Source of the DNA: Porphyra umbilicalis
Lineage: Eukaryota; Rhodophyta; Bangiophyceae; Bangiales; Bangiaceae
NCBI GenBank assembly: GCA_002049455.2
Contig: KV919050.1
Span: forward strand, 37,120 to 101,119
Direction: 5' to 3'
DNA: 64,000 bases
This document shows, one piece after another, positions 1,009 to 35,294 of the stretch. Positions within the stretch are counted from its first letter, which is position 1. Every line of letters starts with the position of its first letter. The position numbers and the translations under genes are program-made. The notes under the pieces were generated by a model. It was not told where the DNA came from and did no database searches. It saw only the letters and a list, made by a program, of their open reading frames with translations.

Positions 1009-2461
1009 CTCGGCTGGGGGGACACGGCGGAGACGGTGTTGAGTCCAGACGCTAGCGCGCCGGTACGCGTCACTGCGATGAAGATGGGCGCGACGACGAC
1101 AGTCGACAACGCGGGGATGCGACCACGACGGCCAACGGATGCATGGCATAGAGGAGGATGCACGATTGAACAGCGATCGATCAACATCAGATTCTAAGGA
1201 GTTTCTGACCACTGATAATTATTGCTGGTATTTATTGCCGATCGATCGCGATCGATCAACGCTCTACGAATCAAGGGAGATACTCCCGATACTGTCTGCA
1301 CGCCACGGGTCACGCAGACCATTGGCGTACGTGTTCCGAACAGGGAACCAGGGGTTGGCCAAACGACTCGGGGCGTCTCCAAACAGGCCTGTTTGGAGTG
1401 GCGCTGCCGTTCAAGCTCCAAAAGAAGGGCGATCCCGCGAGACGACCACGAGATGCACTAAGGGATTAGAAAATGTGAACAGGTCTATTTATGGGTCGTC
1501 ACAGCCCCGTCACACCCTAGTTTTGGAGCGGATCCCAGCCACCAGTGCTCCAACCGTCCAAACGGCCAAACGGTGCCACGTTTGGCTGTTTGGACGGTTG
1601 GAGCCATTGGTGGAGACGCTCTGAGGTGTGTGGCCAGCACGTAGAACAGGCCCTCGAGTCATCGAGTTCTGCTAAAATAAACTTGTGTGGCCCCCGCTGA
1701 TGTGGAATTCAACACATTAGTATTTCCGTTCTGTACCTTCCAAATCATGATTCTGTTGTCAGTTGCCCACGATTTCATCAAAGGCAAGGGTTAGACAACT
1801 GCACGTCGTTGAAGGATGGTCACGAGGCCACGGTGGCACGTCGTCAGCGTACAAGTCAAGCGACGGTTGGCGTTCACGGTCTGCCTGGATGAAGCTGGCT
1901 AGACGAGACTTGCTCGACTGGTGGCCAACCGGCGGGTTGACAATGGCGTCCTAAGAGCCCTCTCGCGAGGGGTGACGACCACACCGCCTCTGGGATCTAT
2001 TGGCCTTGACCTTTCATTCGTGAGGCGCGCAGCGGGTCTGGTGGCATCGTCGTCGGCCACGAGTGGCCAACGTGCCGCCGCACGTGCGCGGCGTGCTTGC
2101 CACGGGTTGGCATCTGTCTGGGTAGCTAGGCCCCCGGGGGCCCCGCGGACCACTGCCACTCCCGCGCGGGCCGGCCCGGGCCCCCACCCGCGCCGCCGCC
2201 ACCCACCCCGAGTGTGGCCCGCATCGCGATCGCCGCGGGCATCGCCGGCGCGCCGCCCCGCCGCGTCCCCGTGTTGCCACCCCTGTACAGTATCCCCCGT
2301 CGGGCGCCCGGCTTCGACGCCTTCCCTTTCCTGGGGCGTTTCCTCCCCCCCCGGCCCCCGCCGTCCCCCCCCCCCCCCCCCCCCGCCCTCTTCTCCAGCC
2401 CCGCTCGCGCCGGTGGCCGCGCCGCTGTTGGGGCAAACGGCGGGCGCGCCCCGCGACACTC
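1009..2461. other. Intergenic region with palindromes, no gene seen
   Basis: No supported gene. The part just upstream of the minus-strand SANT gene is AT-rich and holds an 18-bp perfect palindrome at 1240-1257 (GATCGATCGCGATCGATC) near a CAATAAATA-type stretch that could serve as its promoter. A foldback structure occupies 1370-1622. From about 1900 the DNA becomes extremely GC-rich and leads into the plus-strand gene whose start could not be fixed. Confidence 0.5.
1370..1622. repeat. Foldback/MITE-like inverted repeat
   Basis: Arms at 1539-1572 and 1579-1613 pair over about 34 bases with a 6-base loop (GTGCCA) and a few mismatches. A perfect 20-bp palindrome, TCCAAACAGGCCTGTTTGGA, lies at 1378-1397 and shares the CCAAAC motif. 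The outer edges carry GCGTCTCCA (1373 onward) and its inverse TGGAGACGC (1611-1619), which suggests a small non-autonomous element. No target-site duplication was found. Confidence 0.45.
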
Positions 2462-3710
2462 GCCGGCGGGGGTGGTCCAACCGGGCCGTATGGGGCGCTC
2501 GACGCGCTGCCCGCGGGGGCCCCACCAGCGGCGGACGGGCGCGCTGCAGAGGCGGCGGCGCTCGCCGATGCTGCATCGGCACCCGTCCAAGCCGTGGCCG
2601 CCGCTTTGGCCCCGCCGGCCGCCGACCATGGCAACGGCCATGGCGCTGGCGACGGCGGCGGTGCGCCGCCCGACGTGGAGCTCGGCCCCCTCGTCGTGAC
2701 CTTTTTTGCGAACCCCTCACCCCCGTCGCTGTCGATGATGACGCGGGCCTGCTCTTTTGCGACCTCGTGCGGGACCGGCGGTCGCACGCCAACCGCGGGG
2801 TGCTGCCGCGCACCTTTTGCCCGACGGTTCTGCGGGCGGTAATCGACGTGGCGGCGACCGAGTTGTTGGTCATGAGCGCCTCTGCGTCGGGGGGGGCGTC
2901 GCTCGTCGAGTGGCTCGACTTGGCGCCGGACGGGGGGGGGTTGACCTACTCGGAATTTTTTCGTGGCACGCCCGCCGCCGGTGGCCCCCAGTGGCGGCCA
3001 CGGCAACGGCAATGGCGTCGGCGACGGCGGCGGCGGCGGCGGCGCGCAGCCGCCCGTCGGCAGCCGGCAGCTGGTGGCGGTTGCGTCCCCGCTCGTCGCC
3101 CACGCGTCGCCGGTCGCCGCGTCGCCGGGCGGGGGCTCCCCGAGCGCGGCGGCGGCGACGGCGGCGGCGGCGACCACCACCGCCGCCGCCGCCGCCGCGG
3201 GGGTGCCCCCCTGCCTCGTCGCCCTCCTCGCCAAGCAGGTCGGGCTCTTTGGTGGGTGGGTGCAGCGGCCGCCCGGGGCGGCCGCCGAGCGCCCCTCCCC
3301 GACCATTTGCGCCGTGTCGCCGGACAATGGGGCCGACGCGGACGCGGTGCGGCGGCTGCTGGTGCGGGCGGCGATGCTCGCGTCCGTGTGGCCGACGCGC
3401 GTGCGCGTCAGTGTGCCCGACGGGGGGGGGGGGGGGGGGGGGGGGGCAAGCGGCCGTTACGGGAAAGGGCAGGTGGGGAGGGGGGGGGGAGCGGCTGGGG
3501 GGGGGGGGGGGCGCCGCCCGCCCGCCCGCCGCGGCCGCCGTCACGCGGTCGGCCGCCGCGGCGGCTGCCACGCGCCCGGCGGCCGGCGGGGGGGGGGGTG
3601 GCCGCCGTCGCCGCCGACCGTGGCGTCGGGCGGCCGCGGGGGGCACCGCGACCCGCCCGGGCAGCCGGCCACGGGCTATCGGCACACCGCGGGGGCGTGG
3701 GTGGCCCCGC

Positions 3711-3751
<41 letters not shown>

Positions 3752-3789
3752 GTGGCGGGGGTGAGCTGATCACCGTCCGTGACGGGTGA
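2462..3789 (+). CDS. Unrecognised Ala/Gly-rich protein
   Basis: I do not recognise this protein. Protein-like sequence is seen in successive frames: about 2470-2700 (GPTGPYGALDALPAG... VELGPLVVTFF), 2703-2961 (VDDDAGLLFCDLVRD, LPRTFCPTVLRAVIDVAATE, SLVEWLDLAPDGGGLTYSEF) and 2963-3420 (PPCLVALLAKQVGLFGGWVQ, DADAVRRLLVRAAMLASVWP). The frame changes fall at T-runs (2702-2707, 2956-2961) and G-runs. The last frame ends in GGGGELITVRDG at a stop at 3787-3789. Low-complexity Gly/Ala linkers separate the ordered blocks. It is convergent with the minus-strand cyclase/reductase gene, about 520 bp away. The start is uncertain. The alternative is a decayed gene. Confidence 0.4.
3421..3595 (+). repeat. 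Dense G-run cluster (G-quadruplex potential)
   Basis: Several long uninterrupted G runs lie close together, the longest exceeding 20 G, separated by short spacers such as CAAGCGGCC and AGCGGCT. The arrangement satisfies the simple four-tract rule for a G-quadruplex on the plus strand. It falls within the 3' half of the unrecognised gene, where any reading frame would be poly-Gly. Confidence 0.7.
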
Positions 3790-4307
3790 GGGCGGGCGCG
3801 TCCGCGCCTGCTGCGCCCGCACCACAGGTGCGCCGTGGCGCCCGCCACCACGGCCGTGCCTCCGTCCCGCCAGCGAGCCAAGACGCCCCGCGCGCCGCCG
3901 CGTCGTCGGCCACACCAGCCGTCGGCGGCGGGCCCGGGGGGACCGCCCGCCCGCCGGCGGCGCACGCACGGTTCGCGACGGGGCGCGCGGCGGCCGGCAC
4001 GCGCACCGGCCGCCCCCGACGCGACCCGCCCCCACCACACATGGTCCCCGCAACGACCCGGCGGGTGGGTGTCCCCTCGCCCCCCTCCCCCTCCCCCTCC
4101 CCACGCGCACCGCCGTGGGGCGATTCCCCCCCCGTGGCGCCGCGCACGGCGGCGGGGGCGACGCCGGGGCAGCGACGCGACCGCGGCGCGCACGTCCACG
4201 GGGCGGCACGGGGCCACGACCGGCGGACGGAAAACAAAAAAAAACGCTTGGCTCGGCGGAACCGCCCGAGCCGCCGCGACCCGCACCCGTCGTGCGGCGC
4301 CCCCTCC

Positions 4308-5217
4308 CTACCCACCACCACCCGGCGCCACTGGGCGGCCGACGAGCACGACGTCCCCCCCCAGGACCGACGCGGTCACGTCGGCGAGGCGCGGGAAGCC
4401 CCCCCCCCCCCCCCCCCCCCCCCCCGCCGCCAACGCGCACCGCCCCCGGGGCGGCAACGACCACGGGCGCGACGGTCACGAGCGCCGCGTCGGCGAGCGG
4501 CCGCCCCCCGCCCGCCGTCGGCGCCAAAAAAGAGCCGAGGACGGCGCCGCCGCCTTCGACCATCACCGACCGCACGCCGCGGGCGCGGAGGTTGGCGAGC
4601 ACCGCCGGCAGGTGCAGGCGCGTGCGGGGGACGACCCCGCCGCCGTCGCCGCCGCCGCCACCGCTGCCGCTGGCGCCATTGGCGCCCGCCCCGTCGGCCG
4701 CGGCGTGCGTCGCGGGTGGCGGCGCGACGGCGGGGACGGGGACGGTGAGGAGCCCCCCCCCAAAGGGCGCGTCGCCCGCCCCCCCCCCCCCCCCCCCCCC
4801 CAGCGAGTCGGCCACGTACCGCAGCGCCGGGGCGACCCCCCCCCCCGGGCGGTGAGGAGCTTGGCGCCGACGGGCAGGCGACCCACCCCATCCAACACGA
4901 CCGGCAGCGGGTGCGCGCCGCCCGCGCCGTACCGCCGCACCGTCAGCGACGGGTCGTCGGCGAGGACGGTGCCGACGCCAACAACGATCGCGTCGTGCGC
5001 CGCCCGCAGGCCGTGGGCGACCGCCCACGTGGCGGGGGCGGAGAGGGACAGCGTCGCGCCGGCGGCGCCCGAGAGGGCGCCGTCGAGGGACTGCGCCCAC
5101 GTGGCCGTGACAAACGGGTGCGCCGCCGCCGGCGGGTGCGCGGCAATGGCGGCGCGGAGGGGGGCGAGCACCGCCTCCACGCCGGGGTAGGTGGGGGGGG
5201 GGGGACGGGGGGGGGGG
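4308..5217 (-). CDS. RibD/RIB7-type pyrimidine reductase domain
   Basis: This matches the reductase domain of riboflavin biosynthesis, which reduces the ribosylamino-pyrimidine 5'-phosphate intermediate with NADPH. Visible motifs in order: FVTATWAQSLDGALSG (substrate strand), HDAIVVGVGTVLADDPSLTV (the hallmark hD.i.vG.gTvl.DdPsL), PLPVVLDGVGRLP, then GVRSVMVEGGGAVLGSFL (glycine-rich nucleotide-binding motif) and LADAALVTVAPVV. The end, FPRLADVTASVLGGDVVLVG, stops at TAG 4308-4310. Frames change at the C-runs 4836-4846 and 4399-4425; one extra base at each would keep the frame. No methionine precedes the domain in its own frame, and no stop separates it from the cyclase upstream. An ATG at 5301 in another frame is the alternative start of a separate gene. 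Confidence 0.75.
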
Positions 5218-5417
5218 ACGCCACCGCCAACCGCTTGAGGCCGTCGTCGACGGCGCCGGCCGAGGCGTCGGCCGTGTCGACACCCGCCGCAGGGGCGCCA
5301 TCGGCCCCCTCCCGCGGCCGCTTCTTGCTCACCGCCGCGGACGTGGCGGCGGCGGCGGCCGCCGCCGCCGCTGCCGCTGCCGCCGCCGCCGCCGCCGCCA
5401 CCGTCGCGTCCCGGCCG

Positions 5418-6585
5418 AGGCGCACGGCCTTGCCGACGACGCGGAGCGTCGCCCACCCCCCCCCCCCCCCCCGTCAGCGTCGCGTCGACGCCCGCCGCCA
5501 CCGCCACCGCCACCGCCGTTTCAGTGTGGCGCGTCGGCGGCGCAATGCGCACCGCGCTGACGCCGGCGGCGAGCGCGAGGTACGGCAGCAGCTGATCCGC
5601 CGCGTGCGCGTCAACGGCCGCGCCCGCCGCCACGTCGGCGGCGAGCGACGCCGCCGCCGCCGCGCCGACCGCCTCGGCGCGGACCCCCTTTTCGCCGAGC
5701 GCCGACGCGCCAACGACGCGGCCGTCGGGGTAGGTGAGCGCAAGCGTAATGCCGCAGGCGCGGGGGGTGTAGGCGGGGGGGGGGGGGGGGTGGGGGTGCC
5801 CGCTGGGACGCTGCCGCCGCCGTCGGCGGCGGCGGCGGCGGCGGCGGCGCCGCTGCCGCCGTCGGGGTTGCCGCACCTGCCGCGGCGGCCGCGGTCGCGG
5901 CCCCTGCCGCGGTCGCGTTTCCCCCCCCTCCCCCCCCCCCCCCCGCCCTGTGGCCTTCCGCCACGGGCGTGCCCTCCACGTCGAGCATGACGCCGCTCGT
6001 GTCGGCGAGGCGCGCCCACGTGGCCGCCGGGAGGGCGCGGCGGAGCTCCGCCGCCGCGCCCGCAATTAGGCGCGCGCCGACGCTTTCGGGGAGGCCCGTC
6101 ACCCACGCGCGGCCGGTCAAGGCGGTCGGCTCCCCCGCGTCGGTCCAGTCGACGGGGGAGAGCAACCCCCCCCCCCATCCCCACCGCCGCCCCCACCGCC
6201 ACCGCCGTCGCCGCCGTCGCCGCCACCGCCGTCGCCACCGTCGCCGCCGCCTTCGCCGTGCGCCGCGGCGGCGGGCACGGCGACATCCCACGACGCGGCC
6301 CCCCCCCCCGCGGGTAGTAGCCCGGCACGACCCCCCCCGCGGGCGTCAGCGCCACGCCGACGCACCCGAGCAGCGGCGCGAGCACCAGCCGCACGTAGTC
6401 CACGGGCGGCGACGCGGCGACGGCGGTGCCGCCGCGGAGGGTTAGGCGCGCTGGCGCAACGGTGAGGGCGGCCGGCAGCGCCGCTTGGAGGATGAGGGTA
6501 ACCGCCCCGGCGGTGCCCGCGTCCGCCTCGTACACGCGGATGGCGGGCGTCGGCGCGTGGGGGGCGGGTGGGGGTGGGGGCAGCA

Positions 6586-6656
<71 letters not shown>

Positions 6657-6895
6657 CCGCCGGGCGCCGACACGGTCAGCGCGTGGGAGCCGCGGCTGGC
6701 GCCCACGACCGCCACGCCGGTGAGGGCGCCGACGAGGCGCGCGCCCGCCACGTGTTGGGCGCCGAGGCCGGGCGTCGGCCGCCCGCCGCGGATGTGGTGG
6801 ACGGTGATGGGGCGGCCGAGGGTGGCCGCGTAGGCGAGGGCGGCGCGCACGACTTGGCCGCCGCCCTCGCCGGCGGCGCCGTCAATGGTGATCAT
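5418..6895 (-). CDS. RTCA: RNA 3'-terminal phosphate cyclase (RTCA/RtcA type)
   Basis: This enzyme converts RNA 3'-phosphates to 2',3'-cyclic phosphates through a covalent nucleotidyl-histidine. The N-terminus MITIDGAAGEGGGQVVRAAL is the family signature and fixes the start at 6895; an in-frame ATG at 7057 would add a 54-residue Ser/Pro-rich leader. Next come ITVHHIRGGRPTPGLGAQHV, ADAGTAGAVTLILQAALPA and VPGYYPRGGG. Later blocks are GEPTALTGRAWVTGLPESVG, LALTYPDGRVVGASALGEKG, DQLLPYLALA and PPTRHTETAVAV. The last holds the expected catalytic His (codon 5526-5524), so this is cyclase-type rather than the His-less Rcl1 type. A poly-Pro insert is encoded by a GGC repeat at 6585-6651. Frames change at C-runs 6299-6309, 6166-6176 and 5456-5472 and near 5775-5790. 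Confidence 0.85.
6585..6651. repeat. (GGC)n microsatellite inside the cyclase gene
   Basis: An almost perfect GGC trinucleotide repeat of more than 20 units. Read on the minus strand it encodes a poly-Pro stretch between the first two conserved cyclase blocks, in a place where the protein can tolerate an insertion. The frame is kept across it. Confidence 0.9.
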
Positions 6896-7623
6896 GGGCG
6901 GGCGTCGGGGGGCGTGGGGGGGGGAAGAGGAAGCGGGGGGGATGCAAGTGGGAAGGGGAAGGGCGTGGGGGGAGGGAGGGGAAGACTGTGAGCTTGGGGA
7001 AGGGGAGGGAGCGGGGGCGGCGACAGGGGAGGCGGCTAAAAGCAGACACAGGCGCACAGGATGGGCTCTGTGACCAAATAAAAAGCAGCACGGGGGAGCC
7101 GACGCCAGAGCCGTTTGAAGACGTGGTCACGGTCGGCAGCTTTAGCCGAAACGCCAGTACAAGCCGCCAGTGGGACCCGGCCTTGAGGTCTCCTTCAACA
7201 GGGGCGGGCGGCACGTCGCGGGCGGCGGCGAGGCGCGCCGTCGACCAACGCCGCGGCAGACGTATCAATAGCCGGCAGCCGACGCAGACGGCGGCCGACG
7301 GGGGCCGCCGCGGGTGACGCGGAACACGTGGCAGGGTCGCACTTGATCCCGCAGCGGCCTCCACGTCGAAACATTCGTGTATGTTTCTGCGACACGTTTT
7401 CAAACTAAAGTGGCGTTCGCGAAAAATACCCCGGCCTGGGAACTCGTGAAGGAATCGGGCGCATCACCATTCACGGGTGCAGGCCGTGAATGCTGCCCGT
7501 GAATGCTACATTGGCCAATCAGAGAGCGTCGTTGTTTCAGTCTGAGCGCTCAGGGCACGATCAGACACGTCCCAGCTGTCGGTCTCCAATGGGCCGTTCT
7601 GACGCAGTCACCCGGCCGGCTTA
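6896..7623. other. Intergenic region upstream of the cyclase
   Basis: No gene is supported. Purine-rich sequence (6896-7020) directly precedes the cyclase start. Around 7465-7520 the octamer ATTCACGG or its inverse CCGTGAAT occurs three times in 40 bp, next to an inverted CCAAT box (TTGGCCAAT). The same octamer recurs at about 9980-10020. The region may hold the promoter of the minus-strand cyclase. Confidence 0.4.
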
Positions 7624-14883: not shown

Positions 14884-15301
14884 TGTTGGACTGTGATGCT
14901 CGTCGCCGACTCCACTGGCGGATCGCGGATGAATGATGGTCGGTGACCCTTATGGTATTGCAGATGGTACATTTGCAAGACGTGGTCAAGTTGCACACAT
15001 TCGTGTTGGGTCATCTTGGGGCGTTACTTTTAGCATGTTTTGGATTTGATCTTCGCTTTGCTCTAGTGGCTTTTGATTTGGTGAGTGATTCGATTTGGTG
15101 CGAAGGCGTGGGCGTCGGTGTGGGCGTGAGAGGGGAGAGCACTTGGGCCGGTGGGGATTATTTGACAGGTGCTCTCGGTTGGGAGAGGCGGGGGAACCTG
15201 AGGACAACCAACAAAGCACGTTCGCACACACACACACAAGCTCAAGCCACTCAACCACTTCACCGTGGTCCCCCAACCCCTATCCGCACTGCGTTTCAAC
15301 A
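14884..15301 (+). repeat. 5' LTR
   Basis: Starts TGTTGGACTG and ends GTTTCAACA. It contains GTGGGCGTCGGTGTGGGCG and a CA-rich tract near the end. It is the same length as the 3' LTR. The cluster TATTGCAGA against TACCCTACA (about 14954-14963) holds five of the twelve differences. Confidence 0.95.
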
Positions 15302-15319
15302 GGTTATGGGCCCAGAGCC
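15302..15319 (+). promoter_or_regulatory. Primer-binding site for half-length initiator tRNA-Met
   Basis: GGTTATGGGCCCAG follows the LTR with no gap. It is the exact complement of CTGGGCCCATAACC, the anticodon stem-loop of eukaryotic initiator tRNA-Met, rather than of a tRNA 3' end. This is the arrangement known for Drosophila copia, where a cleaved half tRNA primes reverse transcription. Confidence 0.85.
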
Positions 15320-15462
15320 GGGGCTGTGACAAGAGCAAGGTGTGCCAGCTGGTGTCGCGGCGGTCGCGGCAAAAGCGAAGAAGACGAGGTCAAGGTGGTT
15401 CAAGGACGTGACGGTCAGGGCGCACGACTCGGCAAGGTCGGGCGCTACGACAAGACGACATC

Positions 15463-18400
15463 ATGGACGGAGGCGCTGCCGGAATGGGCGGCATCAAGAT
15501 CGACAAGTTGACGGAGACGAACTTCCACGAGTGGCGTCAGCGTATTAAGGTGGTCCTCGCGCTGCGCGACCTGGACGATATGCTTGAAGAAGACGGAAAG
15601 CCGACGGACGCGGAAGACAGCAAGTTGGCTTTGTGGAAGCGTCGAGACACGAAGGCGAGCGCCATCATGGGGCTCACCCTTGGGTCTGAGCAGCTCGAGC
15701 ACGAGTCGGGCTGCAAGACGACGGCGGAAATGTGGTCGAAGCTGCAAGGTGTCTTCCAGCGCAAGAGTTTGATGAACAAGATGAAGGCGCGACGCGAGTT
15801 CTACACCGTCGAAATGAACGTCGGCGAGGGCATGCTGGGCTACATCAACCGCGTGCGCAACCTCGGCGAGAACCTCAAGGCCATGGGTGGCGAGGTGACG
15901 GAGATGGACGTTGCCATGAGCGTCCTCAACGGGCTGACGTCGAAGTACGAGAACCTGCTAGTGGCTCTCGACGCCAAGGGCGAGGACGAGCTAAGCCTCG
16001 AATTTGTCAAGAGCCGCTTGCTTCAGGAGGAGCGGCGTCAGGCGGACAAGTCACCGGCGACCAAGCGCATTGGCCACATGGCACTCGTCTGCGCCAACTA
16101 TCGAGGTCAAGGGCGCCGTGGTGACCTCTCCAAGATCGAGTGCTACTACTGCCATAACTTTGGGCACATCTCTCACGGTTGCCCAGAGCTCAAGGCCAAG
16201 AAGCAGAGACAGGACAAGGTGGCCGCGATTGCGGCTGACGATGGTAGCGACAGCGACGACGCCATCTGTCTGGTGGGCAATGCGGCTGACAGCGATGACA
16301 TCTCCAAGTAGTGGCTTGTCGATTCTGCGGCATCTGCACACATGTGCTGGATGCGCGCGTGCTTCGACAACTACCAGACGACCACGGGACGCAGCGTCAC
16401 GATGGGTGACAAGGGGTCCGCAGCCACGGCGGGCGTCGGAACCGTCGTGCTCAACGTCATCGTTCACAGCAAGACGCGCAAGATCAAGTTGGAGAAGGTA
16501 CTCCATGTTCCTACAATGGGCTTCAACCTCATGTCGGTCGGCATGAAGGAGGAGCGTGGGGCGGAAGTGTCATTCAAGGGCGGATAGACGACCATCAAGA
16601 TGAAAGAGAAAATTGCTGCGTGCGGCACGCGTAAGAACGGGCTCTACCACCTGGACATTGTCCCTATGTCGGATGTTGCTGCGGTGACCTCTGCGCAGCT
16701 ATGGCATGAGCGCCTTGGGCACGTCAACGTGGCTGGCGTTAAGCGGATGATCAAGAACAAGGACATTGACGGACTCAAGTGCTCTTCCATGGCGGTCAAG
16801 GACGTCTGCGAGCCGTGCGTGTATGGGAAGGCGGCTATGACGCCTATGCCTTGTGCAGGAGGAGGTCGAGTCAGCAAGCGCCTGCAGCTCGTGCACTCGG
16901 ACCTGGGCGGGCCAATGTCAGAGCCATCGCGTGGCGGTGGGCTCTACTTCGGCACCTTGACCGACGACTTCTCCCGCTCGACAGACGTGGTCTTCTTGCA
17001 GAAGAAGAGCGATCTGCTCTCTGAGTACAGGAAGTGGCTGACGAAGGCCCAGCTGCACACGGGAACCAAGATCAAGATCCTGCGCTCCGACAATGGCGGC
17101 GAGTATGTGTCGAACGCATTCAAGGCTCTCCACGATGAGAACGGCACGACGCACCAGACCACGGTGCCGGACACGCCGCAGCAGAACGGAGTTGCTGAGC
17201 GGCTCAACCGAGTTCTCGTGGAGATGGCTCGCAACATGATGCGACACAAGGACGCCGATCAGGATCTTTGGGCGGATGCCATCAAGACGGCGGTGGACAT
17301 CAAGAACCGCGTCACGATCCGGGCGCTTCCCGTCGGCAAGACGCCTTTTGAGCTGTGGACCAGGAATCAGCCCAACGTAAGCCACATGCCGGTGTTTGGG
17401 TCGACATGCTGGGTGGTGCTGCGCAAGAGTCACATGGACGGCAAGTTTGGCAACAAGGCGGCGAAGGGCGTCTTGTTAGGCTATCCCGACGGCAGCAAGG
17501 CGTACAAGGTCATCCGCGACGACGGCAAGGTCGTCAAGGCACTAAGCGTTGTGTTCGCCTAGAAAAACGTAAGCGAGGTTGCAGAAGTTGCAGAGGAGCT
17601 TCCCGGAGACGAAGACGTCGGAGTCGAGACGGCCTTGCGTTCTGCAAGCGACGGCGAAGCCGTAGATGCTGACAATGACGACAAGGATGACAAGCAAGAC
17701 GATGGATCTGAGAAGTCCGCGGACGACAATCAAATTTGTGACGGCTCTCAAGACACGCTGCGTCGGAGCGGCAGAGCGCGGCGACCACCTGTCGAGTACA
17801 GGCGCCCGGTGAGCCTGTTCGCTCACGAGGCGCCCACGACGTACGTGCAAGCCGTTCAAGGGCAAGAATCGGCCAAGTGGCGGATTGCCATGGATGCGGA
17901 GATGGAAGCCATCCGCAGGAACAAGACTTGGCGCTTGACAGATCGCCCGGCCATTCGAAGCGTGCTGAAGGGCAAGTGGGTGTACAAGGTCAAGAACGAG
18001 GTTAACAAGAACGGGAACAACACGACGCGGCACAAGGCGCGCCTGTGCTTCATGGGGAACTGGCACATCAAGGGGCTCGACTTTAACGAGACGTTCGCGC
18101 CGGTGGCCCAGTTCACCAGCATCCGATGCATCCTGGCGATGACGGCGGCGAACGGGTGGGAGCTACATCAGATGGACGTCAAGACGGCATTCCTCAACGG
18201 AGACCTTGACGAGGAGGTATCCATGGAGCAGCCAGACGGCTATGTCGATCCGACGTATCCTGACAAGGTGTGTCGTCTTCTCCAAGCGCTGTACGGGCTG
18301 AAGCAAGCCCCCAAGATGTGGTACGCCAAGCTCGACGACTTCCTCGAGTCGCAGGGGTTCGATAACATCGACCCAGATGCATGCCTCTACCTCCTTATGG

Positions 18401-19394
18401 ATGACGGCGAAATCATCATCGTCCTGGTGTACGTCGACGATCTTCTTTTGGTGGCATCAAGCCTGGCGGCGATCTACAAGATTAAGGACGCTCTGCACAA
18501 GCGTTTTGAGATGAAGGACCTGGGCGAGGCGAAGGTCATCCTCGGGCTAGAGATTAGACGTGACAAGACAAGGTGTTGGGCACCCTCAAGCTGTCGCAGG
18601 GCAAGTACGCGGCGCAAAAGCTGGAGAAGTTCGGGATAGCGGAGTGCAACCCGATCGGAACGCCGCTGGAGGTGGGCCTGCAGCTGGTCAAGGCCGACGA
18701 GAGCGACGACGTGCTGCCCTACCGCGAAGCCGTCGGCAGTCTAATGTACCTGACGGTTGGGACGCGTCCTGACCTCGCCTTCGCCATCGGGAAGCTGAGT
18801 CGGTTTGTATCGTGCTACGGCAAGGAGCATTGGGCGGCGATCAAGCGCTTTCTACTGTACGTCCAGGGTTCGATGGACAAGGGGCTAGTCTTCGACGAGA
18901 ACTCTTCCTGTGTTCTACAAGGCTTTAGTGATGCCGACTGGGCGGGTGACCACGAGACGCGACGTTCTACGACGGGCTTCACCTTCATCTTTGGCGGAGC
19001 AGCCGTCAGCTGGGGTTCTAAGTTGCAGAAGACGGTTGCACTGTCGACGATGGAAGCCGAGTAGATGGCTCTATATGAGGCCAGCAAGGAAGCTGTTTGG
19101 CTCAACAAGCTCGTGCAAAGCGTGGCATCTCAAGGGCAGCGGACAGCGATCTCGGGCGGGCCGATCAACATCAAGGTCGACAACAGCGGGTGCATTGACT
19201 TCTCCAAGAACCCCGTCGAGCACAAGCGCACCAAGCACGTCGACATTCGCTACCACTTCGTGCGCCAGGCCATCACGACGGACAAGGTTACACTGGAGCA
19301 TTGTGCAACAGACGACATGGTGGCGGACCCGATGACGAAGGAGCTCGGCAATACCAAGCACGACAAGCATGTCGAGGCCATGGGGCTTTGCTGA
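15463..19394 (+). pseudogene. copia Gag-Pol polyprotein, interrupted
   Basis: Gag begins MDGGAAGMGGIKIDKL and ends with a CCHC knuckle (CYYCHNFGHISHGC). Protease shows WLVDSAASAHMC, with DSAA in place of the usual DSGA. The integrase zinc region (LWHERLGHVN...CEPC) precedes a core with HSDLGGP, LRSDNGGEY and NGVAERLN carrying the D, D and E. Reverse transcriptase has VYVDDLLLV. RNase H has SDADWAG and STMEAE. TAG interrupts the frame at 16309, 16585, 17560 and 19062, and a frame change occurs at about 18570. The final stop is TGA at 19392-19394. The TAG at 19062 replaces the Tyr normally found after the STxEAE motif. Whether any TAG is read through is unknown; the frameshift makes this copy probably inactive. 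Confidence 0.95.
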
Positions 19395-19419
19395 ATACAA
19401 GAACCGCCGCGCCAACAAG

Positions 19420-19429
19420 CAAGGAGGAG
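19420..19429 (+). promoter_or_regulatory. Polypurine tract
   Basis: CAAGGAGGAG or similar purine-rich sequence (AAGGAGGAG at 19421-19429) lies directly before the 3' LTR, the standard position for the primer of plus-strand DNA synthesis. Confidence 0.8.
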
Positions 19430-19847
19430 TGTTGGACTGTGATGCTCGTCGCCGACTCCACTGGCGGTTCGCGGATGGATGATGATCGGTGACCCTTATG
19501 GTACCCTACATGGTACATTTGCAAGACGTGGTCAAGTTGCACACATTCGTGTTGGGTCATCTTTGGGCGTTACTTTTAGCATGTTTTGGATTTGATCTTC
19601 GCTTTGCTCTAGTGGCTTTTGATTTGGTGAGTGATTCGATTTGGTGCGAGGGCGTGGGCGTCGGTGTGGGCGTGAGAGGGGAGAGCACTTGGGCCGGTGG
19701 GGACTATTTGACAGGTGCTCTCGGTTGGGAGAGGCGGGGGAACCTGAGGACAACCAACAAAGCACGTTCGCACACACACACACAAGCTCAAGCCACTCAA
19801 CCACTTCACCGTGGTCCCCCAACCCCTATCCCCACTGCGTTTCAACA
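19430..19847 (+). repeat. 3' LTR
   Basis: A 418-bp copy of the 5' LTR, beginning TGTTGGACTG and ending GTTTCAACA. It is followed directly by AAAATGCCATG, which does not continue the gene interrupted at the 5' side. Confidence 0.95.
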
Positions 19848-20570
19848 AAAATGCCATGATTGTTTGTTGGCGACGGTTCCCGCATCCTGTGGCCAGCAGC
19901 GGCCGGCGTCGTGAGGACAATCTGAATCGGGGCCGGTACATATTTTTTGACCGTGATCATGCCCCAAGAGACATTAGGAATTCCGCCCAGGACGATCGCT
20001 CGCTTCGCGAGGATATCTTCTGGGTCAAGTCTCACGTGCGTGCAAGAATAACCGCACGTTTCGTGGGACGGGTGACTTTGTGCTCGTCAAAGGCCGATTC
20101 CGAGCGGTAGCCTGCTGTCCCGGGTCCAGTGCCTGTCGGGGCACTTGGAGAACGGAGAGTATGCGCCTCATTGGCCGAGATCTATCTCGTGTTCGAGTGG
20201 TCCACTTCTAGTTTGGGCAAACCATCACCCACCCAGGCTGGCCATTTTTCAGAAAACCACCATAGAACCGTTCAATCACGCGACTCGACCCAATTTTGTT
20301 GTTGTCCGAGTGTAATACGAGATTCAGAACGGTCATTCTGACGTCCGTTTACACAAACGGCGGGGAACCGCCTCGACGGCGTCCGTTGTGGCGTTGAAAT
20401 CAAGTGTGGATTTCAAGTCGTACTGGCGTCCATTTAGCACTCGAATAACGGCGGATGGCGTTCTTCTTGGGCTCTAATTGAGCTGTCCGTCGGACTTCGG
20501 GGATTATATTCGGATCCAATAACCCTATCCGGATACGACTATAATCTCCTCACATATCCGGTTCTGAAGG
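19848..20570. other. Non-coding flank with a hairpin
   Basis: No gene seen. A short hairpin, TTGAAATC-AAGTGTG-GATTTCAA, lies at 20394-20416. From about 20500 the sequence holds several ATCCGGAT-like motifs (CGGATCC, TATCCGGATA, TATCCGG) that match motifs near the other end of the following mobile element. Confidence 0.45.
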
Positions 20571-23833: not shown

Positions 23834-25263
23834 CTAGGTGTGTACGGTGCGCTTCCAGCGGGCCTTGGCGACCGCCGGTGGTACATCACTGCCCTTCCCC
23901 CCGGTGCCCTTTCCGCGCTCTTGAGATGGCCCGTGCTGATCCTCAGCTGCCGGGGCGACAGTGGATGTACCGGGCTTGGTTGAGGGCTTCGTCTCATCGA
24001 CCTCAAGAGCCATTTGCTTCCACACAGACGAGGCCATCCCGCTTGCGCCGGATGTTGGCACCTCAAAGCGGTCAGGCACGAAGCGGCGGGGAACATACTT
24101 GGCGTACAAGTCCGCCAGCGCCTTGGCGCCGTACGGGATCTTGCGGAGCTCGGGGTGCTCGCTGTACGGCTGGATGGCAGCCAGCGCATCGTTGATCCGG
24201 GGCACCTCATGGGTGACCATCCAGCCGACCTGCTCGCGCCACAGCAGGTCGTCTGCCGACAGGCGCATAAACAGGCGGACCAACCTGCTGGTAGACACGC
24301 GCTCGGGCAGCAGCATCGCGTCTGGTGGTGCCCCGCTGCGGCTCGGCAGCGCCTCCTGCCCAACCCGCACGAACGTGCCCTTGTGCAGCGACGGGAACAC
24401 GTCATGACGCAGGCCCCTGGCGGCGGACTTCTTGCACTCCGCCATCAACACAATGTCCGACACGTGTGGACCTGGGTCCACAAACGGCTCAAAGCCCGGT
24501 GGGGTATGAATGACTGGGTCTCCCAGGTTGACTTGGCCGTCGTCGGCTAAGAGCACGAAACACCGGTATGACATGATGTGCGTGATGGCAGAGAAGATCG
24601 TCTTGGAGCCGTCCCTACACGTGTGCAGCATGCTCCCGTCGTAGGCACCGGAGGTGGCGTAGCTCTTGAACATCTGCACCAACTTTCCGTTGTTGAAGGC
24701 GTCCGACCTTTTGAACCTCCCGGCCAGAGCCTGCGCCACGCGGTCGGGCCCAAACTTGGTGTGGCCGACGACCATGTAGAGGACCATGGCGCAGTCAAGC
24801 AATCCGCACGACAGCAGCAAGCCAAGGCCCCCGTAGAAGTACTGCGACTTGTTTGTGCCCGCACAGGAGTCCAAGTGCAGTCGCAGTTTTCGCACGAAAG
24901 GAAGGGGCACGTTGGACCGGTGGCCGACTGAACCGCTCGTAGAGACGGCGATCCCGGACGAGTGGGTGTGCGGTTCCGAAGAGCGAGCCGGGGGCTGGAT
25001 GCAGCTGGCCGCCCAGGCGTCTGAAGGCGACGCTCTTGCGTCACCAATGCCGAGCGGCGACTCGTGGGCCGCACTGTCGTTGCCCCCGGCATCCTCATGG
25101 GCGATTGTAGCGAATTCCGCGTCCGCGGTTGACACGAAAGCGAGTAGGTCGAGGCCGCTGCGCTGACAACCGTCGATGTTGTCGACACCAGCAGCACCAC
25201 GAGATGAGGCCGCACTGCCGGGGGTTTTAAAGGGAGACAAGTCGGAAGCACCTTCACAACTCA
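23834..25263 (-). CDS. Transposase-like protein, catalytic-type half (DUF7869-like)
   Basis: An intact frame of 476 codons starts MSCEGASDLSPFKTP and ends ARWKRTVHT. The key block, KLRLHLDSCAGTNKSQYFYG then MVLYMVVGHTKFGPDRVAQA, matches the LHxDNCxGQNKN...GHTKFxPDR signature of DUF7869-like proteins of eukaryotic transposons, with Ser in place of the usual Asn after Asp. The N-terminal 150 residues are acidic and Ser-rich, and the C-terminal 60 are Lys/Ser-rich. The frame stays open upstream to 25981, but that part looks non-coding. It converges on the plus-strand gene with 309 bp between their stops. No internal stops are present, in contrast to its partner. Confidence 0.65.
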
Positions 25264-26019
25264 TGTTGTCGCCTGTGTGTGGGGAAGCATACGCGAAGGA
25301 AAGCAGACAAACGTGTGAAGAGACGATGCAATCCGGGAAAGTTAGAGTCAGCAACTGCCACCAGCACTCACAGGCCCATGGGAGATGGTCCGATACCTCT
25401 TCGGCAAGCAGACGGTACCAAATGCGCGCACACGCAGGGGTGACCGGACGCACCTGCTGGAGCCCGATGGAGCCGTGCTGAATGAGGGTGAAAGCAGCGG
25501 CGGACAGCCTCAGCGGTTCGGAGGTGGGCGGAGGACCGCCGGTTGACGGCCAAACGAAAACAAGAAGGCACGCGCCGCGTTGATGAGCATGCAGGGTGAT
25601 GCGCCGCGGAGGCGAGATGCATCGACAAGCGCGGGCGGGAGCGCGCTCGTGTTGGGGTGGCCAGCCAGTCCACCACACGGGATCACCCAGGAGGCGGGCG
25701 AGCCCGCCAAAGCCGTCGGCGCAGCGAGAACGCGTTTCGTTGTCGGCTGGCGCCCTGTTTCTGTCGCGAGAACTGTGACTAGCCCCCCTTTCTGGATGTC
25801 GTTTCCGATAGTAGCCCCCTCTTGAGGTCCTAAAGTCTTGACACATTCTTCGGCCCACTGGAAAGTCTGTAGAATGTGCCAAAAGTGACTTCTGCAAATT
25901 ATGCACGTCAATTCTTGTCCACTTTCTCTGGAAATAGCGGCGTTGGAGAGATCTCGATGCGGGCGTCACGGTGGTTGGCATAACTCCGAAATGTGCAGCC
26001 GGTCATACAGTGACGATTC

Positions 26020-31686: not shown

Positions 31687-33163
31687 GAGGAAGATCGGTG
31701 AGATGCGGTGGGGAAAAGGGCCCTCGGTCGCCAGCGTATCAATTGTAGACCGCGGCGCGATGTGGTGAGGTGTGGCTGGCACGTGACCCTGGTCAGCCTA
31801 AAACTGTTTCCAATCCATCTAAATAAGTGTTACGGACGACCCAGGCTACAATTAGCCACTGGTTGCAGCCATTCCGGACCTTGTGCCCGTCCCTCGGCCG
31901 CCACCCGCCCTTGGCGGTCAGCGTCGCGGCACCCTGCGCCCAGCGCAGTGGTGCTTACGCCATAGGCATTGACAATCTCCCAGCAGTCAGCAGCCTGTGC
32001 AGCTGGCTCACAACAGCCACACATGCGGTGATGCGGTCGATATTGATTGACGATTGGATCATGGAGACCCTTAGCCGTCAGAGCAAACCTAGCAATGATG
32101 GACTAACGAAACGTGTCTGTTTTATTGGTGCAACGTGTCTATATTCGCTTATTGGTCCACGAACCACCCTCTTGTCAATGTAACCGTGCCCCAAACAACG
32201 TCGAATCACCTCGAACCACCCCCGACAATTTACATAACTCCTTCTCGGTCCAATAGTCCGGGTGGCAGAATAGAGGGTGCATGTTCTATTCGAAGGCGAA
32301 ATACGGCACGGCACCCCTATTCAGGACACGAGGACTATCCTGGACGCCCTCTCATTGGCTGATCGTCAAATGAGATGGATCCACCACGTGTCCCACGGCC
32401 TCGGATCACCTGAAACGACGACCGGCAAACGATCGCACGCTACAGACAGGGCTGTATCTGACATGTGACCGAACGTTTGACCGAACGTTGGACGCTCCCA
32501 GACAGACACAGCTGGCTTGAGGCGTCGGAACGTATGAGCGAGACACGGACGCCGGACGAAGGGACACACCAGTACCTTGACTCCATGGGCCGGACACATG
32601 ACACCTGAACGAAACGAGCCGTTCAACATCGGGGAAAGTGGAGCACATGCGGGCCTGTCACGTTGACACGGTCTCGTGTTGGTCGCGGTGATGGCGCACT
32701 CAGCTGACCGCAAATCGAGTACCCAAGGTGACGAAGTGTCAAGGACCTTGCACTAAACACGATACGTTGTCCTCGGAATGGCGAAAAAACGACCGCGGGA
32801 GTCGAATCCACAGTGCGTGGCAGGAAATGGTGCTTCGTGACTATCGGTCAACTTTCCAGTAAAGGTGTGTTGGTCAACTGTCCTCCTATTGTGACAGCCT
32901 CTGATACGTACTTGATTGTGGATTGTGTGGTCCAGCAGGGACCGTTCTGTTGAACAGGGGAGCATGCGTCAAACTTCCTCCCCGTTGGTATGATGCGAGG
33001 GGTAGCGGCATGTCCGATGTCCTGTATGGACCCGCCGATGCTCTGGGAGGGGTGGGGGCAGCAACGATATGCTGCCCAGGCCCGATGGCATTCTGGGGGT
33101 GGGGGGGCCGGCTGCTCAATCCGCGGCTGCACCCGTCGCGCTCCGTCCGCCAGCGACACTGAG
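31687..33163. other. Intergenic region, no supported gene
   Basis: Open frames are short and without motifs. GACCGAACGTT occurs twice at about 32467-32486. The last 150 bp before the minisatellite are GC-rich and may hold the promoter of the Harbinger transposase. Confidence 0.4.
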
Positions 33164-33283
33164 GCCGTGCTCGCGACCGCCGTGCTCGCGACCGCCGTGC
33201 TCGCGACCGCCGTGCTCGCGACCGCCGTGCTCGCGACCGCCGTGCTCACGACCGCCGTGCTCGCAACCGCCGTGCTCCCGCCG
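33164..33283. repeat. 15-bp minisatellite, eight copies
   Basis: The unit GCCGTGCTCGCGACC is repeated eight times; copies 1-5 are identical and copies 6-8 carry one to four changes. It ends 41 bp before the ATG of the Harbinger transposase and is open in several frames on both strands. Confidence 0.95.
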
Positions 33284-33324
33284 CCCTGTTCGCATCGTGC
33301 GCGCAAGCACAGTACTCCAGCGCC

Positions 33325-35294
33325 ATGGACGGCGGTTCCATGGGGGGTGGTTTCATGTCACTGGGCGGATGGGAGGGGGAGGAGGGTGGCAACGACGACG
33401 CGGCGACATCAGCCGTCGTCGCAGCGCATGTTGCTACGCTCCTGGAGTGGCGCCGTCGCGCTATGGCGGCGCGACGTGTGCAGCGCCCGCGATACCGCGG
33501 CTCCACGCCCGGCCGGGCGGCCAACAGGCCCCGCAATTTCGAGCTTGGTCTGCACAGTATTCTGCGGGACTACTTCGGCGTGGATGGCCTTCCCCCAGTT
33601 TACGGCCTGCGGGAGTTTGAGCGTCGTTTTCGCGTGCCTATGCCGGTTTTCCTGCGCATCTACCACGCTATTAAGGACCGCCCGTTCTGGGTACAGAGCG
33701 TGAACGCGACAGGGCAGCCGCAAGCGCATCCTCTGCAAAAGCTGGTTGCAGCGTTCCGGGTGCTCGGGTATGGGGAGTCGTGCGATCGCGCGGACGAGTA
33801 CGTGCGGCTCTCCAGTTCAACGATATCTCGGGCGGTGACGCTCTTCACAGAGTTCATCGTGGACGAGTTCAGCCCCCGGTACCTGCGACCGCCCACCACG
33901 GCGGAAATCGGTAACATCCTCGCCCGCAACGCTGAGCGTGGGTTTCCAGGGTGTCTCGGGTCGCTTGACTGTTCTCACTGGCAGTGGTCCGCTTGCCCCA
34001 AGGGGCGTGCGGGCACCTACCAGGGCCGCGATGGCCAGCGGTCCATCGTGATTGAGGCTATCTGTGACGAGGACACTTGGATATACCACATTTTTTCTGG
34101 GTGTCCCGGGAGCCTGAATGATATTAACGTCCTGTGCCAATCTCCGTTGTATATGGATGTGATCACCGGCAAATGGCCCCCGCGTGACTGTCCGTTCACT
34201 GTGAATGGCAATACTCGCACCTTGCTATATTACCTAGTGGACGGCATTTATCCCCGCTTCGCGTTTTTCGTCGCCCCTTATCCGAACCCCCAAACTCGAG
34301 AGCAACGGACTTTCAACCGCCTGCAAGAGGCGCTACGCAAGGACGTGGAGCGCCTCTTTGGGATCCTGACGGCACGCTTCCACATTATGCTGCACCCGTG
34401 CCGGTACTGGTCGGTACCTCGAATGGTGCTGACCACGCAAACCGTTGCAATTTTGCATAACATGGTTGTCGAGACCCGCCGCGACGGGTTTGTGTCGCGG
34501 TCGCGCTCGTCGGTGTACGGGGGGGTGGCGGCGGGGCTGTCGGGACGGTGGCCGCCGGAGCGGCGGAGGCGGATGGGGCGGACGGGGAGGGCGGCACCGC
34601 TGATGCGGGCGGCGCCGCGGGCGCGGGCGCCGCCGGTGGCGGTGGTGGAGCGGCGAGCGCTGGTGGGGCGGGCGGCACCGACGCGGGCACGGGCGCCGCC
34701 GGTGGCGGTGGTGGAGCGGCGGGCGCTGTTGGGGCGGGCGGCGCCGACGCGGGCACGGGCGCCGCCGGTGGCGGTGGTGGAGCGGCGGGCGCTGTTGGGG
34801 CGGGCGGCGCCGACGCGGGCACGGGCGCCGCCGGTGGCGGTGGCGGAGCGGCGGGCGCTGGTGGGGCGGGCGGCGGCGACGCTGGCGCGGGCGCCGCCGG
34901 TGGCGGTGGTGGAGCGGCGGGCGCTGGTGGGGCGGGCGGCGCCGACGCGGGCGCGGGCGCCGCAGGTGCCGGCCCTGGAGCGGCAGCTGGGGCTGGGGCC
35001 GGCGGCGCCGACGCAGGTGCGGGCACTGCCGGTGGCGGCGCTGAAGCGGGGGGCGCTGGCAATACGGGGGCCGTTGGGGTTGCTGCGGGTGCGCTAGGGG
35101 ATCTAGAGCAGACCCCCGGCGTCCCGCCCCCTCATGTCGGGGGCGCTCCAGTGGCGCCAATCAGCGAGTTTATGCGCATCCTCATGGCCACCGGCGAAGC
35201 AAAGTCCGTCGCAGAGCACAAGGCGCTTCGCGATGACCTGTGTGCGCATGTTTTTGCGCAGCGAGGTGAGCTGCTGGAGCCGTATGTTGATTGA
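33325..35294 (+). CDS. PIF/Harbinger transposase (HARBI1-like)
   Basis: A DDE_Tnp_4 transposase that cuts and pastes Harbinger elements. Start MDGGSMGGGFMSLGGWEGEE; a helix-turn-helix-like region follows (LQKLVAAFRVLGYG, SSSTISRAVTLFTEFI). Catalytic blocks: CLGSLDCSHWQW (first Asp), FSGCPGSLNDINVL (second Asp) and EALRKDVERLFGILTARFHI (Glu). After residue 398 the frame changes at a G-run (34519-34525, seven G; eight would keep the frame). The downstream frame is an Ala/Gly-rich 66-bp repeat ending in VAEHKALRDDLCAHVFAQRG and LLEPYVD, a C-terminus of the kind these proteins carry. The catalytic core is intact. Terminal inverted repeats of the element were not located. Confidence 0.92.
34610..35045 (+). 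repeat. 66-bp tandem repeat in the transposase gene
   Basis: Six or so copies of a 66-bp unit built around GGCGCCGCCGGTGGCGGTGG. Because 66 is divisible by three, the frame is kept; it encodes a 22-residue Gly/Ala repeat (GAAGGGGGAAGA...) between catalytic core and C-terminal tail. An array this long within a transposase is unusual. Confidence 0.9.

What the first reader, a model, noticed from the sequence alone, without database searches (positions are those of the whole stretch)
4308..6895. RNA 3'-phosphate cyclase apparently fused to a riboflavin-pathway reductase
Following conserved motifs along the minus strand, the cyclase ends (ATLRVVGKAVRLGRD) in a frame that runs without a stop through a poly-Ala linker and a basic SKKRPRE motif, then reaches the reductase domain, which has no methionine of its own in frame. 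One protein would join RNA end-healing to a RibD/RIB7-type reductase; I know of no described fusion of these. The alternative is two tandem genes, with the second starting at ATG 5301 in a different frame and entering the reductase at the G-runs 5193-5217.
Basis: partly seen in the sequence, partly recalled or inferred. Interest (0 to 1): 0.75.

Follow-up and report, generated by a model that had tools for sequence, protein, structure and literature searches.

The report
RNA cyclase–riboflavin reductase fusion gene
A gene from what is probably a red seaweed appears to join, in one protein, an enzyme that remodels broken RNA ends and an enzyme that helps make vitamin B2, two activities that also sit side by side as separate genes in one group of archaea.

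Summary
Both domains are real. On the minus strand 6895-4308 lie a catalytic-type RNA 3'-phosphate cyclase and, downstream, a RibD_C/RIB7-type reductase. One change lies at the fusion junction (5217-5193), so no single open frame joins the domains. One protein is still best supported: the linker to 5220 codes in the cyclase's frame; the only stop and only ATG in the gap lie in a third frame; a pyrimidine-rich leader precedes ATG 6895 but not 5301. New: in the archaeal class holding Methanomassiliicoccaceae the same pair occurs as neighbours in the same order, within 1.5 kb in 67 of 72 genomes with both on one contig; in Halobacteriota 2 of 35 lie within 5 kb, on opposite strands. The algal reductase does not group with the archaeal ones (p-AU 0.0099), so the pairing seems independent. 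No red algal relative or transcript could be examined.

The parts
6896..7015 (-). pyrimidine-rich leader-like stretch before ATG 6895
   Evidence: these 120 bases are 84% C+T; 0 of 2130 sampled 120-base stretches of the window (both strands, step 60) reach this
6302..6895 (-). RTC domain, piece 1 (frame f2), ATG 6895, MITIDGAAGEGGGQ...; holds a poly-Pro insert
   Evidence: Pfam RTC 6e-35 on 6895-5474; 1qmh RNA 3'-terminal phosphate cyclase 1.5e-24
6171..6299 (-). RTC domain, piece 2 (frame f1) after G run 6309-6299; Gly-rich, exact frame inside the Gly tract unsure
   Evidence: AASWDVAVPAAAAHGEGG follows GYYPRGG
5782..6165 (-). RTC domain, piece 3 (frame f0) after G run 6176-6166; first part of the RTC_insert domain
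   Evidence: Pfam RTC_insert 5e-5
5466..5780 (-). RTC domain, piece 4 (frame f1) after C run 5790-5775; HAADQLLPYLA and PPTRHTETA, whose His aligns with the His of 1qmh
   Evidence: Pfam RTC 1.1e-7 and RTC_insert 1.1e-5; 4o89 2.1e-7 and 1qmh 5.3e-4
5420..5458 (-). RTC domain C-terminal strand (ATLRVVGKAVR), frame f2 after G run 5472-5456
   Evidence: codon score for 5455-5420 +8.1 bits in f2, -16.2 and -16.7 in the others
5201..5419 (-). linker: poly-Ala, SKKRPRE basic motif, D/A-rich stretch, Pro stretch; frame f2
   Evidence: codon scores and leave-one-out control
5193..5217 (-). C11-GT-C12 double run at the fusion junction; frame change f2 to f1
4842..5195 (-). RibD_C / RIB7-type reductase, piece 1 (frame f1): HPFVTATWAQSLDG ... 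GVGTVLADDPSLTVR
   Evidence: Pfam RibD_C 1.2e-16; 4ha7 pyrimidinone 5'-phosphate reductase 2e-13
4411..4839 (-). reductase, piece 2 (frame f0) after G run 4846-4836; RSVMVEGGGAVLGSFL
   Evidence: Pfam RibD_C 3.7e-6; 7lrh 0.0018
4308..4400 (-). reductase C-terminal end (FPRLADVTASVLGGDVVLVGRPV), frame f1 after G run 4425-4399, stop TAG 4310-4308
5299..5301 (-). only ATG between 5475 and 5080; frame f0; start of the rival second gene
   Evidence: this frame scores -19.6 bits over 5300-5220

Best explanation
This is one nuclear gene, probably of a bangiophycean red alga, encoding one polypeptide of roughly 850 residues. The N-terminal domain is an RtcA/RTCA-type RNA 3'-phosphate cyclase: it would adenylylate the 3'-phosphate of an RNA end through a His-AMP intermediate and close it to a 2',3'-cyclic phosphate. 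The C-terminal domain is a RIB7-type reductase: it would use NADPH to reduce the ribosylamino side chain of an early riboflavin intermediate to ribitylamino. A flexible Ala/Pro linker with a basic, nuclear-localisation-like motif separates them, and each domain most likely works on its own substrate. Because the cyclase fold begins at residue 1 there is no room for a plastid transit peptide, so the reductase would act in cytosol or nucleus. The frame changes are most likely wrong or variable homopolymer lengths, not programmed events. Shown: both domains, their order, conserved motifs, coding-like linker. Inferred from the families: catalysis and chemistry. Inferred from the sequence: one transcript, location, taxon.
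For: Both domains pass Pfam cut-offs on one strand within 2.6 kb. All seven net frame changes can be placed on runs of 11 or more, which make up 154 of 2588 bases; 7 of 9 clusters of such runs carry one, the three separate runs of 8-9 none; shifts go both ways, four of -1 and three of +1 modulo 3. In the chosen frames the eight pieces (852 codons) hold no stop but the last. Linker 5300-5220: +11.9 bits in the cyclase frame against -19.6 and -31.3, with 84 of 84 leave-one-out windows right. Between 5475 and 5080 there is one stop (TGA 5331) and one ATG (5301), both in f0, which is neither the frame of the cyclase end nor that of the first reductase piece; so that piece has no ATG of its own. 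A leader-like tract stands before ATG 6895, not before 5301 or 5192. The His aligned with that of 1qmh is kept, as are SLDG, GVGTVLADDP and MVEGGG-like stretches of the reductase.
Against: No transcript, proteome or red algal relative could be examined; no genome is held. The junction itself needs a frame change at a double C run, exactly where an assembly could be wrong. TIGR03399 (RtcA equivalog) scores 235.7 bits, under its curated 250.05, and no NCBIfam reductase model reaches its cut-off. The stretch is very low in complexity, and the codon model was trained on this same gene. The frame inside the Gly tract 6255-6166 is ambiguous (one search finds a 23-bit segment in another frame there). 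In 5 of 76 windows of the flank 6900-7320 some frame also scored 5 bits or more with a margin of 29, and the best window there reached 11.1 bits, so such scores are not unique to coding DNA.
Confidence: 0.73

Rival explanations
1. Two tandem or overlapping genes: the cyclase ends in the linker, and a second transcript starts at ATG 5301 in frame f0. Its first residues (MAPLRRVSTRPTPRPAPSTTASS...) resemble a plastid transit peptide, and it enters the reductase through the C runs, placing the reductase in the plastid as in plants.
For: ATG 5301 is the only start in the gap. The f0 peptide is rich in R, S, T and P and has no D or E over 5301-5220, as expected of a transit peptide (recalled; no predictor was run). 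Plant riboflavin synthesis is plastidic (recalled). It needs a frame change at the same runs as the fusion does, so it is not costlier there.
Against: f0 scores -19.6 bits over 5300-5220 while the cyclase frame scores +11.9; wrong frames in this DNA are R/P-rich everywhere. The cyclase frame has no stop before 4943, f1 none before 4563, and f0 none after 5331 until 3676. 39% pyrimidine upstream of 5301 against 84% before 6895.
Confidence: 0.13
2. Assembly artefact: two separate loci were joined at the low-complexity C runs 5217-5193.
For: The junction lies in a C11-GT-C12 double run; seven run-associated frame changes suggest that run lengths in this assembly are unreliable.
Against: At the six other switch sites of the same gene pieces of one known domain are joined in the right order. 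Strand, order and codon usage agree on both sides.
Confidence: 0.07
3. The run lengths are right, and the gene is a dying copy or is expressed only by slippage of RNA polymerase or ribosome at G/C runs.
For: Taken literally, the sequence has seven net frame changes.
Against: No stop inside the eight pieces (852 codons); both domains keep their motifs. Shifts in both directions do not fit one programmed signal.
Confidence: 0.05

Closest known systems
RtcA/RTCA RNA 3'-terminal phosphate cyclase (PF01137 + PF05189; 1qmh, recalled as E. coli; 4o89, recalled as archaeal)
   Same: whole domain with insert, GEGGGQ, IRxGR, ADQLL and the aligned His; scores far better in the RtcA model (235.7 bits) than in the Rcl1 model (48.9)
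   Different: below the curated TIGR03399 cut-off (250.05); very long branch in the tree; low-complexity inserts; followed by a reductase. Known RtcA is a stand-alone cyclase (recalled)
RIB7 / RibD_C 2,5-diamino-6-ribosylamino-pyrimidinone 5'-phosphate reductase (4ha7, 9l1f; PF01872)
   Same: PFVTxTxAQSLD, GTVLADDP, VMVEGG; the tree places it in one starred clade with these two chains (fungal by recall; the calls name no organism) and eight bacterial rows
   Different: lies behind an RNA cyclase; its first piece has no ATG of its own
GTP cyclohydrolase II-reductase fusions of Chloroflexota (L001, L003)
   Same: the same reductase family as C-terminal partner in a fusion
   Different: the partner is another riboflavin enzyme, not an RNA enzyme
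rtcA-arfC gene pair of Thermoplasmatota (arfC is a recalled name)
   Same: same two families, same order, same strand: within 1.5 kb in 67 of 72 genomes with both on one contig
   Different: separate genes, in 9 of 21 loci looked at with an opposite-strand PAC2 gene between; the algal reductase is not of this lineage (p-AU 0.0099)
RtcA-RtcB operon of some bacteria
   Same: cyclase gene paired with another enzyme
   Different: the partner there is an RNA ligase; a review states that red algae show loss of RTCB (PMC13247085, passages seen)

Membership tests
RtcA/RTCA RNA 3'-phosphate cyclase | RTC and RTC_insert domains over the Pfam cut-offs | tested here: met
   171.8 bits (cut-off 27) and 52.8 bits (cut-off 23) on the joined domain; pieces alone
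RtcA/RTCA RNA 3'-phosphate cyclase | catalytic His (absent from Rcl1; recalled) | tested here: met
   PPTRHTETA aligned with PSCHLLTN of 1qmh; that this His is the catalytic one is recalled
RtcA/RTCA RNA 3'-phosphate cyclase | score above the curated cut-off of the RtcA equivalog TIGR03399 | tested here: not met
   235.7 against 250.05 bits; still the best of the four models listed (Rcl1 48.9)
RIB7 / RibD_C reductase | RibD_C domain over the Pfam cut-off | tested here: met
   95.8 bits against 24.1
RIB7 / RibD_C reductase | score above a curated NCBIfam reductase model | tested here: not met
   TIGR00227 107.3 of 150.15; TIGR01508 89.6 of 186.45. NCBIfam serves bacterial and archaeal annotation
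RIB7 / RibD_C reductase | groups with eukaryotic RIB7 in a tree | tested here: inconclusive
   in a starred 11-row clade with 2 chains held to be fungal and 8 bacterial rows; in the free trees it pairs with L009 (a Spirochaeta MAG; 89/86 and 93/71); alga + fungal chains as one clade not rejected, p-AU 0.563
plant-type RibD/PyrR (reductase with N-terminal deaminase-like domain; recalled) | deaminase domain before the reductase | tested here: not met
   no such Pfam match in any piece given
transfer of the Thermoplasmatota rtcA-arfC pair | reductase nested with Thermoplasmatota | tested here: not met
   alga + 8 Thermoplasmatota rows as one clade rejected, p-AU 0.0099
transfer of the Thermoplasmatota rtcA-arfC pair | cyclase nested with Thermoplasmatota | tested here: inconclusive
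   drawn inside them, 81/62, branch length 2.51, alga + Thermoplasmatota 91/92; but Thermoplasmatota without the alga as a clade gives a slightly better likelihood, p-AU 0.643
single fused polypeptide | one transcript and one protein across the junction | not testable with these tools
   no transcript or proteome data; no genome held

The most novel reading that the evidence does not exclude
RNA 3'-end cyclisation and the riboflavin-pathway reductase are functionally coupled. The coupling was reached independently as a gene pair in Thermoplasmatota and as a gene fusion in red algae (reported to lack the RNA ligase RTCB), so RTCA there has a job outside RNA ligation, for example an RNA-end or small-molecule cyclase step tied to flavin or NADPH supply.
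Probability: 0.12. Interest if true: 0.87.

Novelty: new variant of a known kind. Interest (0 to 1): 0.58.

Why it matters
What keeps RTCA in many organisms is not settled (a 2026 review calls its cycle with CNP seemingly futile and its role potentially regulatory, and says red algae show loss of RTCB, with which RtcA shares an operon in some bacteria; PMC13247085, passages seen). A fixed partner from another pathway, the same one found next to rtcA across an archaeal class, is a testable hint at an unknown role. It would also suggest that a riboflavin step in a photosynthetic eukaryote is made outside the plastid. The seven run-associated frame changes in one housekeeping gene also warn that GC-rich algal gene models may be badly broken by homopolymers.

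Tried and rejected
Single open frame through the junction: rejected; the first reductase piece is in another frame.

Programmed frameshifting: rejected as the main account; seven net changes in both directions, all placeable on long runs.

Transfer of an archaeal rtcA-arfC pair into the alga: tested because of L050 and rejected for the reductase; inconclusive for the cyclase.

A fused ORF in prokaryotes: none in the 130 loci held, in which 41 ORFs matched the cyclase, 111 the reductase and none both. These loci are a small sample, chosen for the reductase or for Thermoplasmatota and Halobacteriota.

Red algal or contaminant relatives: two viral-contig scans gave none.

Pairing in Chloroflexota: 5 of 101 genomes have a cyclase; of the 4 that also have a reductase at E <= 1e-20, none has both on one contig. 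This says little. Rfam (gathering threshold) and tRNA searches of the window found nothing.

Papers: ten searches ran. Those on the pair (14: 20 of 302 listed; 24: 0; 50: 10 of 12 listed; 58: 0; 59: 2; 60: 0; 69: 1) listed no paper whose title or abstract start points to this fusion or gene pair. Only two papers were opened, by passages: PMC7423979 and PMC13247085.

Second, weaker reductase matches were mostly not typed either. In one search I left out G276 (cyclase, no reductase), the reductase rows of genomes without a cyclase, and rows beyond the printed list. The boolean 'PAC2 between' printed was too strict (true in 5 of the 9); the count of nine is mine from the coordinates it printed.
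Full report
What is there. On the minus strand, from ATG 6895 to TAG 4310-4308, the window encodes an RNA 3'-phosphate cyclase followed by a RibD_C reductase. Pieces taken straight from the window match PF01137 (6e-35 and 1.1e-7), PF05189 (5e-5, 1.1e-5) and PF01872 (1.2e-16, 3.7e-6). Joined and trimmed of low-complexity stretches they give 1.6e-50, 5.7e-14 and 3.9e-27. The cyclase is of the catalytic RtcA type rather than Rcl1: TIGR03399 235.7 bits, just under its curated 250.05, against 48.9 for Rcl1. A His aligned with one of 1qmh (recalled as E. coli RtcA; that it is the catalytic His is recalled too) is present. The reductase keeps the SLD(G), GTVLADDP and VMVEGG stretches shared with RIB7 and RibD chains, but stays under the cut-offs of the NCBIfam reductase models.

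The frames. The gene is read in eight pieces with seven net frame changes. Every change can be placed on a G/C run of 11 or more: 6309-6299, 6176-6166, 5790-5775, 5472-5456, 5217-5193 (a double run), 4846-4836 and 4425-4399. The gene holds ten such runs in nine clusters (154 of 2588 bases). Two clusters (at 5944-5930 and 4801-4779) bring no net change, nor do the three separate runs of 8 or 9. The changes go both ways, three of +1 and four of -1 modulo 3. This is what wrong or variable homopolymer lengths would give: two thirds of random lengths would change the frame, 7 of 9 do. Within the Gly-rich tract 6255-6166 the exact frame is unsure.

One protein or two. Open frames mean little in DNA of about 82% G+C: a shuffled linker has no stop in a given frame in 57% of trials. 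Codon use says more. A codon model trained on the conserved pieces of this gene picked the right frame in 84 of 84 leave-one-out windows. For 5300-5220, without the poly-Ala, it gives +11.9 bits for the cyclase frame, -19.6 for the frame of ATG 5301 and -31.3 for the third; 12 bits or more with a 29-bit margin occurred in 0.015% of 20,000 shuffles. Against this, 5 of 76 windows of the upstream flank 6900-7320 also had some frame at 5 bits or more with such a margin, though none at 12; of 98 windows of the downstream flank 3780-4300 none had. Between 5475 and 5080 there is one stop (TGA 5331) and one ATG (5301), both in f0; the cyclase ends in f2 and the reductase begins in f1, so the first reductase piece has no ATG of its own. 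The 120 bases before ATG 6895 are 84% pyrimidine, more than any of 2130 sampled stretches of the window; those before 5301 are 39% and those before 5192 56%. In 7 of the 80 prokaryote loci the match to the reductase begins at query residue 3 to 5, that is, next to the C runs; in most it begins near residue 24, so how far the natural N-end reaches is not firmly known. Together this favours one protein, with a linker of poly-Ala, SKKRPRE, a D/A-rich stretch and a Pro stretch. A misjoin at the C runs, or a second overlapping gene with a transit-like N-end, cannot be excluded.

How it would work. Inferred from the families: the N-terminal domain makes 2',3'-cyclic phosphate ends on RNA through a His-AMP step; the C-terminal domain reduces the ribosylamino side chain of the riboflavin intermediate with NADPH. 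The alignment with 1qmh starts at residue 1 of the algal protein, leaving no room for a transit peptide; the basic motif in the linker resembles a nuclear localisation signal (recalled pattern, no predictor run). So I expect a cytosolic or nuclear protein, unlike the plastid reductase of plants (recalled).

A lead found on the way. A scan of prokaryote genomes with the reductase returned 80 loci. In one, L050 from a Methanomassiliicoccaceae archaeon, a cyclase gene lies upstream on the same strand. The other five are 6.7 kb or more apart, and 16 genomes have the two on different contigs, 17 of 89 with G145, which I had left out. In the loci looked at (20 fetched, plus L050), the nine with a gap all show an opposite-strand PAC2-like gene there by the printed coordinates, and the twelve without a gap show none in the stretch held (PAC2 named for L104). 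The reductase of L094 passes the cut-off of the archaeal reductase model TIGR01508 (196.4 of 186.45). On the cyclase tree the gapless loci fall into two separate sets, so the linkage may have outlived changes of what lies between, though the backbone there is weak. As a control I took the phylum of an Archaeoglobi genome (Halobacteriota is my label, after GTDB; 120 genomes): of 97 with both, 35 have them on one contig and only 2 within 5 kb, on opposite strands. In Chloroflexota the cyclase is too rare to tell (5 of 101).

Common descent or coincidence. In the tree with solved chains, the algal reductase falls in a starred clade with 4ha7 and 9l1f (fungal RIB7 by recall; 4ha7 only in part) and eight bacterial rows (99/90); putting it with Thermoplasmatota is rejected (p-AU 0.0099), putting it with the two chains is not (p-AU 0.563), and the free tree pairs it with a Spirochaeta MAG (93/71; 89/86 in the tree without the chains). 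The bootstraps of both trees had not settled, and the alga's composition is unlike the rest. Two of the eight bacterial rows are C-terminal halves of GTP cyclohydrolase II fusions (L001, L003). The cyclase is drawn among Thermoplasmatota, on a branch of 2.51 with weak support (81/62; alga plus Thermoplasmatota 91/92), and Thermoplasmatota without it are not rejected as one clade (p-AU 0.643). Eukaryotic RTCA was not available. So the algal pair was not inherited whole from the archaeal pair, at least not its reductase half; the same partners in the same order seem to have come together twice. That may be chance, since I noticed it after the fact and the archaeal genomes are related to each other, or it may reflect a shared need.

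Taxon. The window has 64.8% G+C, the gene pieces have 93% G+C at third codon positions, and a Pyropia paper gives 65% for that genome and 71% for its coding regions, with 64 to 67.9% in other Bangiales (PMC7423979, passages). This fits a bangiophycean red alga but does not prove it. A review states that red algae show loss of RTCB (PMC13247085, passages); if so, RTCA there lacks the ligase it is paired with elsewhere.

Verdict. Known enzymes in an unusual arrangement: a probable RTCA-RIB7 fusion, not described in any paper that my searches listed, with a striking archaeal gene-pair parallel. The homopolymers of the assembly, above all at the junction, are the main weakness.

Noticed in passing
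window 14937-19911, + strand: Copia-type LTR retrotransposon: gag (PF14223) and reverse transcriptase (PF07727) ORFs, with similar translated stretches at 14937 and 19486 that look like its two LTRs; its reading frame is broken although one search lists no run of 8 or more there.
   Followed up: partly
window 33163-35091, + strand: intact 643-residue ORF matching Plant_tran / DDE_Tnp_4 transposase; no run of 8 or more inside it and no frame break.
   Followed up: partly
window about 1903-3789, + strand: a second G+C-rich coding-like region converging on this gene; its coding signal (2993-3421) stops at a G25 run starting at 3422, as if the frame changed there too; no Pfam match at 0.01.
   Followed up: partly
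window 61312-62186, + strand: coding-like stretch with a GHSAG motif, possibly an alpha/beta hydrolase (recalled motif); no Pfam match at 0.01.
   Followed up: partly
window 23840-26002, - strand: 721-residue ORF with a DUF7869 match (5.4e-7).
   Followed up: no
window 4263-4236, - strand: short hairpin followed by a T run downstream of the gene's stop; one terminator-like site found in 4000-7300, 0.9 expected by chance.
   Followed up: partly
window 45093-45974: repetitive stretch open in several frames (HHQQLRAWWCHPATPPPG... recurring); period not measured.
   Followed up: no
L050 and L091-L110: rtcA-arfC gene pair in Thermoplasmatota, with or without a PAC2 gene between; a Mut7-C RNase gene follows in L104.
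   Followed up: yes
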